Below are positions 23,678 through 28,368 of a stretch of 32,737 bases of DNA, one piece after another. Each line of letters begins with the position of its first letter. The stretch's first letter is position 1. Made by a program: the position numbers and the translations under genes. The notes under the pieces were generated by a model. The model had not been told where the DNA came from, ran no database searches, and saw only the letters and a program-made list of their open reading frames with translations. Source of the DNA: Propionibacteriaceae bacterium (GTDB lineage Bacteria > Actinomycetota > Actinomycetes > Propionibacteriales > Propionibacteriaceae); the NCBI GenBank assembly GCA_031272825.1, contig JAISTE010000072.1, positions 1 through 32,737 on the forward strand, written 5' to 3'.

Positions 23678-24684
23678 AGTACCGCTATCTTGGAAATTCA
23701 GGGTTGAAGATCACCGAGCTGGTCTATGGAAACTGGCTCACCCACGGCTCGCAGGTCGAAAAGGACACCGCGCTGGAGTGCATCAAAGCCGCTCTCGACG
23801 CCGGAATCACCTCCTTCGACACTGCCGACGTCTACGCCAACGGCGAGGCCGAACGCATCCTTGGCAAGGGGCTTAAGGGCCTGCGCCGCGAGGGGCTGGA
23901 GGTTTTCACCAAGGTCTACTGGCCGGTCGGGGAGAAAGGGCCCAATGACGTCGGCCTTTCGCGTAAGCACATCATGGAGGGCATCGACGGTTCGCTGCGG
24001 CGTCTGAAGATGGATTACGTCGACGTCTACCAGGCTCACCGCTACGACACCGAAACCCCGCTGGAGGAGACGATGAACGCCTTCGCCGACGTGGTGCACT
24101 CCGGCAAGGCCCTCTACATCGGCGTCTCCGAGTGGAGCGCCGACCAGATCCGCGCCGGCGTCGCCTACGCGCGCGACCTGGGCATCCAGCTGATCTCCTC
24201 CCAGCCGCAGTACAACATGCTGTGGCGGGTGATCGAGCCCTGGGTTCAGCCCACCTGTGAGGAGCTCGGCGTGACACAAATCTGCTGGTCACCCATTGCG
24301 CAAGGGGTTTTGACGGGCAAGTACCTGCCGGGCCAGCGTCCGCCGAAGGGATCCCGTGCGACGGACGAACACGGCGGCGCCTCGACGATCAAGAGCTACC
24401 TGCGCGACGACGTCATCACCCGCGTGCAAAAGCTCCGCCCGATCGCCGACGAGGTGGGCCTGTCCCTGGCGCAGCTCGCGGTCGCCTGGGTACTGCAAAA
24501 CCCGAACGTCTCGGCCGCCATCATCGGCGCGTCCCGCCCCGAGCAGATCACCGAAAACGTCGGTGCCTCAGGTGCGGTAATCCCGCCCGAGCTGATGGCC
24601 AAGATCGACGAGGTTCTAGGCGACGCCGTAGTGCGCGACCCGATGAAGACAATCGAGCGCGCGCCGAAGGTTCGTCCGGCGTAG
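23674..24684 (+). CDS. Aldo/keto reductase
   Basis: 336 aa, GTGA overlap with lacI gene; MKYRYLGNSGLKITELVYGNWLTHG, GITSFDTADVYANGEAERILGK, RLKMDYVDVYQAHRYD, AAIIGASRPEQI. Confidence 0.93.
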   Translation: MKYRYLGNSGLKITELVYGNWLTHGSQVEKDTALECIKAALDAGITSFDTADVYANGEAERILGKGLKGLRREGLEVFTKVYWPVGEKGPNDVGLSRKHIMEGIDGSLRRLKMDYVDVYQAHRYDTETPLEETMNAFADVVHSGKALYIGVSEWSADQIRAGVAYARDLGIQLISSQPQYNMLWRVIEPWVQPTCEELGVTQICWSPIAQGVLTGKYLPGQRPPKGSRATDEHGGASTIKSYLRDDVITRVQKLRPIADEVGLSLAQLAVAWVLQNPNVSAAIIGASRPEQITENVGASGAVIPPELMAKIDEVLGDAVVRDPMKTIERAPKVRPA

Positions 24685-24698
24685 GCAAGACGAAAGGT

Positions 24699-24730
24699 GG
24701 CCGGGTACCCGCAATCCCGAGTACCCGGTC
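24699..24730. terminator. Hairpin downstream of aldo/keto reductase gene
   Basis: CCGGGTAC (24701-24708) / GTACCCGG (24721-24728), 12-nt loop; no clear U-tract. Confidence 0.5.
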
Positions 24731-24805
24731 GTACCCCACTCACTTGAACGTGTTATCGGGCTTCGGTCGCCACGCGCTCGGTAGGCTTGGGCAAGGAGGT
24801 TGGCT

Positions 24806-26377
24806 ATGAAAGAGTTGCCGCTCGGGATTCAGACGTTCGCTGAGGTGCGCGACGGCTACGTGTACGCCGACAAGACTGGTTACGTTCAGCAGCTGGCCGA
24901 GGACGGCAAATACTTCTTCCTCTCCCGCCCCCGCAGGTTCGGTAAGTCGTTGTTCGTCGACACCCTTAATGAGGCGTGGGAAGGGAACCGGGAACTGTTC
25001 GAGGGGCTGGCGCTAGCTGAGACGGACTTCTCGTTCGAGCCGCATCCGGTGGTGCGGCTGGATATGTCGACGGTCGATATAAGTTCTCCTGCCCGGCTTG
25101 AGGAGGATTTGCTCTCGAATCTCGCAGATAGGGCTGCCGCCGATGGTCTTGTGATAGAGGATAAGCTTGTGATCGGGTACTTTCGTTCCTTGATTCTTGG
25201 GCTGTCCCGCAAGTATTCGAAGCGGGTGGTGGTGTTGATCGATGAGTATGACAAGCCGATCATCGAGTACATCAATGACAAGCCGCGGGCTGAGGCAAAC
25301 CGGGCGGTACTGCGCGGGTTGTATGGTGTGTTGAAGGGCCTAGATGCTCACCTGAAGTTCGTGTTCTTGACAGGTGTATCAAAGTTCACCCGTCTGTCCT
25401 TGTTTTCAGTGTTGAACAATCTGACTGACATCACCTTGGTTCCGGATTATGCGAATATTTGCGGCATAACCGAGCCAGAGTTCGACGATCTGTTCTCCGA
25501 GCATCTTGCGGCGGCACTCGCTCGGGGCAACTCGGGCGAGAAGAGTATGGCGGGGCTTCGTCAAAAGGTGTTCGACTGGTACGACGGCTACTCGTGGGAT
25601 GGGAAGAGTAGCGTTTTCAATCCGTTCTCGTTGCTGAGCTTCTTCCAGTTCGGAGTGTTCAGCCCGTACTGGTATTCGTCGGGTACACCGTCGTTTCTGA
25701 TGAAGACGTTGAAGGGCCGACCGCGGGTGTTCCTCGACGTCCAAGACGAGCCCATCTCGACGCTTGACCTTGACTCTCACGAGATTGAGGACGCCCCGCC
25801 AGCATCGTTGCTGTTCCAAACCGGTTTTCTGACGGTGAAGAACGTCGACTACATGATGACCCCGCCGGTGTATCAGGTGGGTTTCCCGAACCTGGAAGTG
25901 TCGACGTCCTTTGCTAAGAGTTTCATGCTAGACGGCCTGGGTGTGCCGGACGCAGACAACCGGGCTCTCAAGCTAGTGAAATCCCTCATGGCTGGCGATG
26001 CGGGCGCCTTGGAGGACGCACTTGCTGGGCTGTTCGCGTCGATCCCATACAACTTGCACCAGGGCAACGAGGCTTACTATCACTCGCTGTTCTTGGCTTT
26101 CATGCAGTCGATCGGTCTTAGGGTTGAGGGTGAGGCTGCGGTCTCGGGTGGCGAGGCCGACGGCATGCTGGACATGCCGACTGGTCATTCGTACGTGATC
26201 GAACTCAAGTACTCCAAGGACGACGAAGCGGATCTAGATGCGCTGGCAACCAAGGCCTTGAACCAGATCAAGGCGAAGGGCTACGCCGACCGCTACAAGG
26301 GCACGGACAGGAGCGTTCACCTCATAGGCGTCGCGGCCTCCGGCAAGGGGAATGTCAAGGTAGTCGTCGGGGCTTAG
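24806..26377 (+). CDS. AAA-ATPase-like / PD-(D/E)XK nuclease-like protein (AAA-ATPase_like + PDDEXK_9 architecture)
   Basis: FAEVRDGYVYADKTGYVQQL, FLSRPRRFGKSLFVDTL (Walker A-like), RVVVLIDEYDKPIIEY (Walker B), C-terminal SYVIELKYSKDDEADLDALATKALNQIKAKGYADRY (nuclease-fold motif). AAGGAGG RBS before ATG 24806. Confidence 0.88.
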   Translation: MKELPLGIQTFAEVRDGYVYADKTGYVQQLAEDGKYFFLSRPRRFGKSLFVDTLNEAWEGNRELFEGLALAETDFSFEPHPVVRLDMSTVDISSPARLEEDLLSNLADRAAADGLVIEDKLVIGYFRSLILGLSRKYSKRVVVLIDEYDKPIIEYINDKPRAEANRAVLRGLYGVLKGLDAHLKFVFLTGVSKFTRLSLFSVLNNLTDITLVPDYANICGITEPEFDDLFSEHLAAALARGNSGEKSMAGLRQKVFDWYDGYSWDGKSSVFNPFSLLSFFQFGVFSPYWYSSGTPSFLMKTLKGRPRVFLDVQDEPISTLDLDSHEIEDAPPASLLFQTGFLTVKNVDYMMTPPVYQVGFPNLEVSTSFAKSFMLDGLGVPDADNRALKLVKSLMAGDAGALEDALAGLFASIPYNLHQGNEAYYHSLFLAFMQSIGLRVEGEAAVSGGEADGMLDMPTGHSYVIELKYSKDDEADLDALATKALNQIKAKGYADRYKGTDRSVHLIGVAASGKGNVKVVVGA

Positions 26378-26380
26378 CCC

Positions 26381-27040
26381 TTAGATTGCGGGCGTCGAAG
26401 CGTTGTCGCCGTAGAAGACTATTCCGGCTTCCAAGTTCTTCCGATACTGGCATTTGCGTGAATAAAGCAAGTTGTCATGTAAACAGCGCCGTGCATCAGA
26501 GCACTCAGCGTAGAGCGAACAGCACCCGAAAGCGTCACCAGTCGACGAATAGTTGCGATAGCGGAGCTCAATTACCTCTCGCACCCAGGCGTAGAACGGG
26601 TCGTCCATCTGGTTAAGGGTAAGTGTGATGGTGTCTCTGGAGCCGTTGGATTGGACATCACCTTGATAGCCAGGTAGTGGAAGCTCGTGCCAGGATTCGT
26701 ACACCGATACTTGGGCGGCTGCGGGTCTAAAGTCAAACCTGAAGAGAAGCTTCTCCTGAGAACCCAGCTGGAATGTGGCGGACGCCGGGTAGTGTTCTTC
26801 GACGAACAACACTATCGTGCTGGCGAGCTGACCCTTGAGGAAAGCTGCGGTGTCAGACTTGCTTCGCAGGGGACGCTCGCGGAGTAATACTTGGCCTTCT
26901 TTAAGCCCGCTGGCTTCGAGGAAATCCTGGACGATTGTCGCTACACGGGCCTCGACGGTTGCCTTGACTTGGGGCAGAGATCCCTCATGGGTGACGTCCG
27001 CTGCGCCGCCTACGCACTCACATTCTTCGGGTTGCGTCAT
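26381..27040 (-). CDS. Hypothetical protein with C-terminal Cys-rich motif (CC-x5-C-x5-C-x9-C)
   Basis: 219 aa; FGCCSLYAECSDARRCLHDNLLYSRKCQYRKNLEAGIVFYGDN near C-terminus; convergent with the ATPase gene and divergent from the exonuclease gene. Confidence 0.7.
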   Translation of the reverse strand: MTQPEECECVGGAADVTHEGSLPQVKATVEARVATIVQDFLEASGLKEGQVLLRERPLRSKSDTAAFLKGQLASTIVLFVEEHYPASATFQLGSQEKLLFRFDFRPAAAQVSVYESWHELPLPGYQGDVQSNGSRDTITLTLNQMDDPFYAWVREVIELRYRNYSSTGDAFGCCSLYAECSDARRCLHDNLLYSRKCQYRKNLEAGIVFYGDNASTPAI

Positions 27041-27158
27041 GACCGCATTCTAGGACTCCAAGATGCCAGCCAGCGAGCCGCTATTATTTGTGGCAACCGT
27101 GATGGTCTATGGGGATAGACCATGATCTCAGTTCACGGAGCTCAATGATAGGAGTGCG

Positions 27159-28229
27159 ATGGCCCGGAATTCGTTTCTTGTCTTCGACGTGGAGACGCCG
27201 AACCGTAGGCAGGATCGAATCTGTCAGCTAGGCATGGTTCGCGTTTATCCAGGCGAGAAGCACCCTGTGCCTCGCGGCTTGCTCATCGACCCCGAGGCTC
27301 CCTTTGATGATGTGTGCGTTTCGGTTCACGGAATTGAGGCACAGCACGTCTATGGGAAGCCAACCTTCCCGGACTTGTGGTCGCAGGGGCTAAAAGAAAT
27401 CTTTGAGAGCTCGGTTTTGGTGGCACACAATGCCGCTTTCGACCTATCGGTACTGTCGAAGACTCTGGCTTTCTACCGTATCCCCCAGCCGGAGATTGTA
27501 TACATGGACACCTTGGAGCTCGCCAAGTCCTTCTACCCCGGGCTTCCCAACTATAAACTTCCCGTAGTATGCGAACATGTGGGCTTTCCGCTGGCGAACC
27601 ACCACGATGCCGGGGCGGACGCCGAGGCTGCGTACCACGTTCTCGACGAAACTCTTCGGCGTTTCGGGGCTGCCGCATTGGCGCCTCGAACATACAACTC
27701 GGTACTGCCTGTCAAAGAAGACCCGCTTGAGGGAATGCGTAATGTCCTGGCGTCGATCGCGGCAGATGGGCGAGTTGACTTTCAAGAAGCGCTCGAGCTT
27801 CGTCTGTGGATGGACGAACATCAGGAGGTTCTCCCAGCCAAGTTGTACGACAAGTTCGCAAGCCTGCTTTTCGAAGTACTCTACGATGGTCAAATCGACG
27901 CCGACGAAGAGCGCACCTTGTTGTCGGAGTTCAGGGACTTCACTCAACCTGCAGAAGCGACGTCGGAGAGAGTTGACCTAGCTGGCAAAACTTGTGTTCT
28001 TACCGGTGACTTCAAGCACGGATCGAAGGCCGCTGTCACTGATCACATCAGCGCGGCCGGTGGCGTGGTCAAGAGCGGGGTAACCAAGAAAACGGACTAC
28101 GTAATCATCGGATCCTATGGCTCAGAGCGCTACAACTTCGGGACATACGGAGGCAAGGTTCTGAGAGCAAGGGAACTTCAAGAACAAGGATTGCCTATTC
28201 AGATCATCTCGGAGGATGCCCTCTACTGA
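27159..28229 (+). CDS. DEDDh 3'-5' exonuclease with C-terminal BRCT domain
   Basis: 356 aa; FLVFDVETPNRRQDRICQLGMV (Exo I), VAHNAAFDLSVLSKTL (Exo II), HHDAGADAEAAYHVL (Exo III); LAGKTCVLTGDFKHGSKAAVTDHISAAGGVVKSGVTKKTDYVIIGSYGSERYNFG (BRCT). Confidence 0.9.
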   Translation: MARNSFLVFDVETPNRRQDRICQLGMVRVYPGEKHPVPRGLLIDPEAPFDDVCVSVHGIEAQHVYGKPTFPDLWSQGLKEIFESSVLVAHNAAFDLSVLSKTLAFYRIPQPEIVYMDTLELAKSFYPGLPNYKLPVVCEHVGFPLANHHDAGADAEAAYHVLDETLRRFGAAALAPRTYNSVLPVKEDPLEGMRNVLASIAADGRVDFQEALELRLWMDEHQEVLPAKLYDKFASLLFEVLYDGQIDADEERTLLSEFRDFTQPAEATSERVDLAGKTCVLTGDFKHGSKAAVTDHISAAGGVVKSGVTKKTDYVIIGSYGSERYNFGTYGGKVLRARELQEQGLPIQIISEDALY

Positions 28230-28288
28230 GTGGTGATCTGCCGGGCGGTGCTCATGTAGTCAAGGCTGTTGCCCCCCCACAAGCTCCT

Positions 28289-28339
28289 TTGTCCGGGAAT
28301 AACCTCCGGGTTAGAATAGTTGAGTCTGGTGCGCTCAAC
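28289..28339 (+). promoter_or_regulatory. clpB promoter with HAIR-like (HspR-binding) inverted repeat
   Basis: TTGTCC (28289-28294), 17-bp spacer, TAGAAT (28312-28317); GTTGAGT-N7-GCTCAAC at 28319-28339 matches the architecture of HAIR (CTTGAGT-N7-ACTCAAG). Confidence 0.7.
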
Positions 28340-28368
28340 TAACTTGGGCGCTTGAGAACGAGGAGATT

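What the first reader, a model, noticed from the sequence alone, without database searches (positions are those of the whole stretch)
24806..28229. Possible accessory patch: ATPase-nuclease, Cys-motif protein and DEDDh exonuclease-BRCT
Between the LacI/AKR operon and clpB, three genes carry nucleic-acid-processing signatures in a convergent/divergent arrangement: Walker A/B plus PD-(D/E)XK; a Cys cluster; Exo I-III plus BRCT. Base composition looks less GC-rich than the flanks by eye. Such a combination could be a defence or DNA-repair cassette.
Basis: partly seen in the sequence, partly recalled or inferred. Interest (0 to 1): 0.62.

Follow-up and report, generated by a model that had tools for sequence, protein, structure and literature searches.

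The report
Split exonuclease plus cysteine-protein mobile module
Two of the three flagged genes are halves of a previously unnamed module, a DNA-end-type exonuclease plus a cysteine-motif protein that in other bacteria is nearly always next to it or fused to it and often sits in prophages, while the third gene (an ATPase-nuclease) is probably an unrelated passenger in the same foreign DNA patch.

Summary
Three intact genes lie in a ~3.6-kb patch (24685-28311), GC 0.55-0.57 against 0.61-0.65 in the flanks, with atypical codon use. Homology to congeners stops at both edges, and the genes are absent or nearly absent from relatives.

The reading "three-gene cassette" is only partly right. P0001 (AAA-ATPase_like + PDDEXK_9) shows no linkage: 0 of 117 module loci. 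P0002 (Cys motif) and P0003 (DEDDh + helical bundle + BRCT) are a real unit. Using the Cys motif alone as bait, 52 of 53 full-length relatives with room on both sides are adjacent (<500 bp) or fused to a DEDDh/BRCT protein. There are 19 fusions in either order, and all 63 unfused pairs lie on the same strand; the window's divergent layout is unique in the sample. P0002 matches no Pfam, NCBIfam, PHROGs or PADLOC family and no PDB fold.

DEDDh-BRCT genes, with or without the Cys partner, recur between repressor and integrase in temperate phages. P0003's sister, in a same-family genome, lies in such a position. The patch is therefore probably ex-prophage cargo. The best guess for function is a lysogen-expressed nuclease acting on invading DNA; that step is inferred. 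The PADLOC "PDC-S48" hit is non-specific.

The parts
24685..28311 (.). low-GC accessory patch between AKR gene (ends 24684) and clpB (starts 28369)
   Evidence: GC 0.55-0.58 vs 0.61-0.66; nucleotide homology to congeners ends at 24678 (AKR side) and begins at 28312-28316 (clpB side); AKR and clpB are not neighbours in the congeners examined, so an exact empty site cannot be drawn
24806..26377 (+). P0001: AAA-ATPase_like + PDDEXK_9 nuclease protein (passenger; not linked to the module elsewhere)
   Evidence: PF09820 2.3e-54, PF08011 7.2e-16; Walker B VVVLIDEYDK, E-x-K motif VIELKY by eye; 0 of 117 module loci carry it
26381..27040 (-). P0002: Cys-motif partner protein, 219 aa, helix + beta-sheet domain followed by C-terminal Cys domain
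   Evidence: no Pfam/NCBIfam/PADLOC/PHROGs family; AF2 pLDDT 84.7, pTM 0.79; no PDB fold match; 52/53 relatives linked to DEDDh/BRCT
26402..26530 (-). Cys domain of P0002, residues 171-213: FGCC-x5-CSD-x3-C-x10-C-x-Y-x2-NL-x2-G-x2-FYG-x-N
   Evidence: near-invariant in 69 relatives
27041..27158 (.). 118-bp divergent intergenic region between P0002 and P0003
27102..27123 (.). perfect 9-bp inverted repeat ATGGTCTAT-GGGG-ATAGACCAT, possible operator or hairpin
   Evidence: 0.3% of 5000 simple shuffles of the intergenic region hold such a repeat; single copy in the genome
27159..28229 (+). P0003: DEDDh 3'-5' exonuclease - helical bundle - BRCT protein
   Evidence: PF00929 1e-21; D10, E12, D95, H149, D154 conserved in 75-76 of 76 rows; AF2 model, DnaQ-fold PDB matches E 1e-9
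27159..27668 (+). DEDDh exonuclease domain of P0003 (residues 1-170)
27723..27944 (+). four-helix (TerB-like by resemblance) domain of P0003 (residues 189-262)
   Evidence: TerB likeness is inference, no Pfam hit
27981..28226 (+). BRCT domain of P0003 (residues 275-356)
   Evidence: BRCT Pfam 1e-9 to 2e-4 in fused relatives L027, L030, L033, L049

Best explanation
The patch is horizontally acquired. P0002 and P0003 are the two halves of one functional unit, a DEDDh exonuclease-BRCT protein with a Cys-domain partner, which elsewhere travels as cargo in the lysogeny cassette (repressor - module - integrase) of temperate phages and other mobile elements. P0001 is an unrelated passenger ATPase-nuclease. 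Most likely working: the BRCT and helical domains bring the exonuclease to DNA ends, nicks or gaps; the DEDDh domain removes nucleotides 3' to 5'; the Cys protein, probably metal-bound (zinc or iron-sulphur) and in the same complex, confers target recognition or switches activity. The net effect would be exclusion of competing phages or plasmids in the lysogen. Shown: pairing and fusion, catalytic residues, mobile-element context, foreign composition. Inferred: the complex, metal, substrate and defence outcome.
For: Pairing: 52/53 full-length Cys proteins with sequence on both sides are adjacent or fused to DEDDh/BRCT; 78/83 counting contig edges. 19 fusions in both orders, 63 unfused pairs all on the same strand, mostly overlapping or within 30 bp. 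Fused proteins confirmed by Pfam. Catalysis: DEDDh residues conserved throughout. Mobility: 18/19 viral and 27/63 genomic module loci carry an XRE regulator, serine recombinase or integrase within the few kb held, 0/17 control loci; XRE - DEDDh-BRCT - Cys - integrase in L207; same position for DEDDh-BRCT in phi 12 and Javan310. P0003's sister (99/99 support) in same-family genome G050 lies between an XRE gene and an integrase. Composition. Precedent: Tha, an S. aureus prophage anti-phage system in an operon with the former 'xis' gene near int (PMC11087260). Some neighbours match defence families (Drt2, ZorD-like, SoFic).
Against: No phage repressor, integrase or convincing att repeats remain in the window. 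No direct defence evidence: PDC-S48 is non-specific, and defence-gene neighbours were counted without a matched control. The window pair is divergent, unlike every other pair seen, so co-expression is not certain. DEDDh-BRCT proteins also occur without the Cys partner (18 of 19 in viral contigs), so the partner is not needed for every version.
Confidence: 0.45

Rival explanations
1. The module serves the mobile element itself: the exonuclease and Cys protein process DNA ends during integration, excision, circularisation or early replication of the phage or island, with no role against other elements.
For: Position beside integrase and repressor; BRCT resembles that of NAD-dependent DNA ligase, which binds nicked DNA (established knowledge).
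Against: The same module occurs with serine recombinases, tyrosine integrases, or neither, so it is not tied to one recombination chemistry; it sits on the repressor side, typical of lysogen-expressed cargo; more than half of the genomic loci show no integrase in the stretch held, as in the window.
Confidence: 0.25
2. It is a stand-alone host DNA-repair or end-trimming function spread by transfer, not tied to phage conflict.
For: DEDDh + BRCT is a repair-type combination; 36 of 63 genomic module loci lack an XRE/integrase neighbour in the few kb held.
Against: Very sporadic: 89 pattern matches in 84,980 genomes, and P0002 found in only this genome of 397 across the phylum; low GC; repeated gain or loss of the partner (10 label changes on the tree). 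Housekeeping repair genes are not distributed like this.
Confidence: 0.15
3. All three genes form one defence cassette.
For: One contiguous patch, all low GC, all absent from most relatives.
Against: P0001 homologs are absent from all 117 module loci (0.9 Mb); P0001 relatives occur on plasmids of Bacteroidota, Pseudomonadota and others, annotated as plain ATP-binding proteins; P0001 GC3 (0.74) differs from P0002/P0003 (0.63).
Confidence: 0.05
4. Decayed remnant: a degraded prophage fragment whose genes no longer work.
For: No other phage genes in the window; pair rearranged to divergent.
Against: All three frames are intact, with all catalytic and Cys residues kept; plausible ribosome-binding sites before P0001 and P0003.
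Confidence: 0.1

Closest known systems
Phage lysogeny-cassette exonuclease genes such as phi12p04 of Staphylococcus phage phi 12 and Javan310_0002 (annotated 'DNA polymerase exonuclease subunit' / 'DinG family ATP-dependent helicase'), PHROGs 192 and 3989
   Same: DEDDh + BRCT architecture aligning over the whole of P0003 (22-25% identity); same repressor-integrase location
   Different: no Cys partner detected; function equally unknown
DnaQ-like / PolC-type proofreading exonucleases (PF00929)
   Same: fold and DEDDh catalytic set
   Different: carries helical and BRCT domains; restricted to accessory DNA
PADLOC candidate PDC-S48
   Same: P0003 hits it at 4.4e-38
   Different: a housekeeping DEDD protein scores 7.9e-35, so the hit reflects mainly the exonuclease domain, not membership
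AAA-ATPase_like / PDDEXK_9 proteins (PF09820 + PF08011), for P0001
   Same: both domains over cut-off
   Different: ordinary member of an uncharacterised family
Small proteins of Bacillus phage G (Gp674, Gp497), structural lead for P0002
   Same: Foldseek E 4e-3, prob 1.00, TM 0.37-0.54
   Different: 139-140 aa proteins of unknown function; 8-15% identity; weak, a lead only

Membership tests
DEDDh 3'-5' exonuclease superfamily (P0003) | Exo I DxE, Exo II D, Exo III H-x4-D | tested here: met
   D10/E12/D95/H149/D154, conserved in 75-76 of 76 family rows; PF00929 1e-21
BRCT (P0003 C-terminus) | BRCT sequence profile and alpha/beta fold | tested here: met
   Pfam weak (0.073) but LigA models 4e-9, relatives up to 1e-9, predicted fold
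DEDDh-BRCT + Cys-partner module | adjacent or fused Cys-motif protein with DEDDh/BRCT protein | tested here: met
   118 bp apart in the window; 52/53 relatives linked
DEDDh-BRCT + Cys-partner module | co-directional genes (seen in all 63 unfused pairs; a usual, not a defining, feature) | tested here: not met
   window pair is divergent
Prophage | integrase, repressor, structural genes, att repeats | tested here: not met
   none in the patch; so 'derived from', not 'is', a prophage
PADLOC PDC-S48 | specific HMM match beyond the generic DEDDh domain | tested here: not met
   controls match nearly as well
Anti-phage defence system | protection against phage | not testable with these tools
   needs plaque assays
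AAA-ATPase_like / PDDEXK_9 (P0001) | both domains above curated cut-off | tested here: met
   184.7 and 58.5 bits
Three-gene cassette P0001-P0002-P0003 | linkage of the three in other genomes | tested here: not met
   0/117 loci

The most novel reading that the evidence does not exclude
P0002 founds an undescribed protein family with an unassigned fold and a new five-cysteine metal or redox domain, which acts as the dedicated sensor or specificity subunit of a mobile DEDDh-BRCT exonuclease: a new type of prophage-encoded exclusion system that exists in split and fused forms across Bacillota, Bacteroidota, Verrucomicrobiota and, here, an actinobacterium-like host.
Probability: 0.35. Interest if true: 0.8.

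Novelty: new variant of a known kind. Interest (0 to 1): 0.56.

Why it matters
A protein family absent from Pfam, NCBIfam, PHROGs and PADLOC turns out to be almost always bound genetically to one nuclease type, which gives an immediate, testable partner and mechanism. Nuclease genes between repressor and integrase occur in many temperate phages of Firmicutes, including S. aureus, and are annotated as polymerase subunits or helicases; this pairing offers a handle on what they do. If it is an exclusion system, it adds a new kind of prophage-borne immunity.

Tried and rejected
PDC-S48 as proof of defence: rejected after a control. P0001 as part of the module: rejected. Exact insertion or empty site: AKR and clpB are on separate contigs or positions in the congeners examined, so no empty site could be drawn. 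Plasmid and phage collections for P0002: no hit. PDB fold search for P0002: nothing below E 0.26. Profile search of PDB sequences: nothing. Pfam scan of 69 P0002 relatives: only scattered weak hits; the one strong hit is BRCT, in one member, probably from a fused neighbour. Rfam and tRNA in the window: none. Literature on DEDDh-BRCT phage genes: no paper found. Defence-island enrichment: individual defence-like neighbours seen, but without a matched control this is not counted as enrichment.

Full report
CHECK OF THE OBSERVATION. The three ORFs exist at 24806-26377 (+), 26381-27040 (-) and 27159-28229 (+). P0001 carries PF09820 and PF08011 above cut-off. P0003 carries PF00929. P0002 has no Pfam, NCBIfam, PADLOC or PHROGs family. 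The patch is compositionally distinct: GC 0.55-0.58 in 1-kb windows against 0.61-0.66, GC3 0.74/0.63/0.63 against 0.79-0.87, and worse fit to the flanking genes' codon use. Nucleotide homology to congeners runs to 24678 on the AKR side and restarts at 28312-28316 just before clpB. In the congeners examined AKR and clpB are not neighbours, so the patch sits at a rearranged junction and no clean empty site can be shown.

PRESENCE IN RELATIVES. P0001: 2 of 30 congeners including this one, the other 49% identical on another contig; PF08011 in 1 of 98 family genomes. P0002: only this genome in 198 family genomes and 397 phylum genomes with the single sequence, and again only this genome in 397 phylum genomes with a 69-sequence profile. 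P0003: only distant DEDDh-domain hits in congeners, but one close relative in the same family, G050 (7e-66).

THE CYS MOTIF AS BAIT. Nothing was found for P0002 in plasmids, phages or, by single-protein search, viral contigs. A degenerate DNA pattern for C-x-Y-x2-N-[FILMV]-x2-G-x2-F-Y-G found 28 viral and 89 genomic stretches. Outside the searched part, the upstream CC-x5-CS-x4-C is present in essentially every member, so this is a true family. The genome hits are mostly Clostridia, with some Bacteroidota, Verrucomicrobiota, Kiritimatiellota and others. That makes it rare and sporadic (89 stretches in 84,980 genomes).

THE PAIRING. Several of these proteins are fusions: Cys domain + DEDDh + BRCT (L027), DEDDh + BRCT + Cys domain (L030, L033), DEDDh + Cys domain (L035), helical + BRCT + Cys domain (L049); Pfam confirms RNase_T and BRCT. 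A profile of DEDDh-BRCT was then run over all 117 loci. Of 53 long-form Cys proteins with at least 1.5 kb on both sides, 52 are adjacent (<500 bp) or fused; counting contig edges 78 of 83. In 82 linked loci there are 19 fusions (15 with the Cys domain C-terminal, 4 N-terminal) and 63 neighbours, all on the same strand, in either order, 58 of them overlapping or within 30 bp. A second class of short proteins with the motif at the N-terminus and other C-terminal regions (13 loci) is never linked. Caveats: some loci are near-copies (L039/L045/L048, L041/L046, L113/L137), and the profile seeds included P0003 and three fusions. Neither explains the result for the unfused majority.

REVERSE TEST. 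Starting from the exonuclease, only 1 of 19 full-length DEDDh-BRCT proteins in viral contigs had the Cys partner, and none of the plasmid and phage examples did. So DEDDh-BRCT is the wider family and the Cys partner marks a subset. On a tree of 76 proteins the Cys label needs 10 changes, with 0 of 500 shuffles as low, so it is clustered but gained or lost repeatedly (L040 is labelled without Cys only because its motif lies at a contig end). P0003 is sister to the G050 protein with 99/99 support.

CONTEXT. In L207 the order is XRE regulator - DEDDh-BRCT - Cys protein - integrase. In phi 12 and Javan310 the DEDDh-BRCT gene lies between the repressor and the integrase, and likewise in G050 across a contig break: XRE - exonuclease | integrase. 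Among 113 neighbours of genomic modules the commonest Pfam families are HTH_3 and related HTH domains, recombinase/resolvase and phage integrase, followed by S24, Fic and IrrE. XRE or recombinase genes are in 18/19 viral and 27/63 genomic module loci and in 0/17 control loci; none is in the window. Hence the pair is mobile-element cargo, and the window copy is probably cargo left or moved without its phage.

P0001. None of the 117 module loci encodes a P0001 relative, and its relatives on plasmids are plain ATP-binding proteins of many taxa. It is best treated as a separate acquisition; its GC3 also differs.

STRUCTURE. P0003 is predicted as DEDDh domain, four-helix bundle (189-262) and BRCT (275-356) (pLDDT 79), with DnaQ/PolC/DinG exonuclease domains as PDB matches. 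The catalytic residues D10, E12, D95, H149 and D154 are conserved in 75-76 of 76 rows. P0002 is predicted with good confidence (pLDDT 84.7, pTM 0.79): a long helix, a beta-sheet, a second helix, then the Cys domain. It has no PDB fold match (best E 0.26) and a weak match to small uncharacterised proteins of Bacillus phage G (E 4e-3).

REGULATION. The 118-bp region between the divergent pair holds a perfect 9-bp inverted repeat at 27102-27123; 0.3% of 5000 simple shuffles hold one as good, and it occurs once in the genome. An operator or hairpin is possible; this is a single-sequence observation.

MECHANISM. Shown: the pairing, the conserved active site, the conserved Cys set, mobile context and foreign composition. 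Inferred from family knowledge: BRCT domains of the ligase type bind DNA ends or nicks, DEDDh domains degrade 3' ends, and compact Cys sets usually bind zinc or Fe-S. The most likely role, given lysogen-side location, sporadic spread and precedent for prophage immunity genes near int in S. aureus (Tha, PMC11087260), is exclusion of other phages or plasmids (about 0.45). Self-service to the element (0.25) and repair (0.15) remain open. The PADLOC PDC-S48 match must not be used as support, because a housekeeping DEDD protein from a congener matches at 7.9e-35.

VERDICT. I rate it a new variant of a known kind (prophage-borne nuclease cargo) with an undescribed partner family.

Noticed in passing
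window 27102-27123: Perfect 9-bp inverted repeat with 4-nt spacer in the divergent promoter region of P0002/P0003; single copy in the genome.
   Followed up: partly
L028, L032, L037, L044 and L034, L038, L052: Short-form phage-contig proteins with the same Cys motif at the N-terminus joined to unrelated C-terminal regions, never near DEDDh-BRCT: the Cys domain is a reusable module.
   Followed up: no
L195 3001-3933 (phi 12), L196 2992-3915 (Javan310): DEDDh-BRCT genes annotated as 'DNA polymerase exonuclease subunit' or 'DinG family ATP-dependent helicase' although about 310 aa long, fully accounted for by DEDDh and BRCT.
   Followed up: partly
L049 11865-13301; L120 1634-2536: Cys-module loci whose partner has BRCT-side parts but no detected DEDDh domain, suggesting the BRCT-Cys core can act without that nuclease.
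   Followed up: no
PADLOC models PDC-S48 (PDLC05027/PDLC05028): The models match generic DEDDh exonucleases, including a housekeeping one in L007 at 7.9e-35, and may produce false defence calls.
   Followed up: yes
window 28320-28340: TTGAGT-N7-GCTCAAC dyad upstream of clpB, resembling the HspR/HAIR heat-shock operator (recalled, not tested); lies at the right edge of the patch.
   Followed up: no
L054 3538-5172 (G023): A congener carries a P0001 relative (49% identity) at another locus without P0002/P0003.
   Followed up: partly
L053 223-2986 (G009): A congener has two DEDDh exonuclease genes close together, one with a BRCT domain and no Cys partner, a few kb from a recQ-like gene.
   Followed up: no
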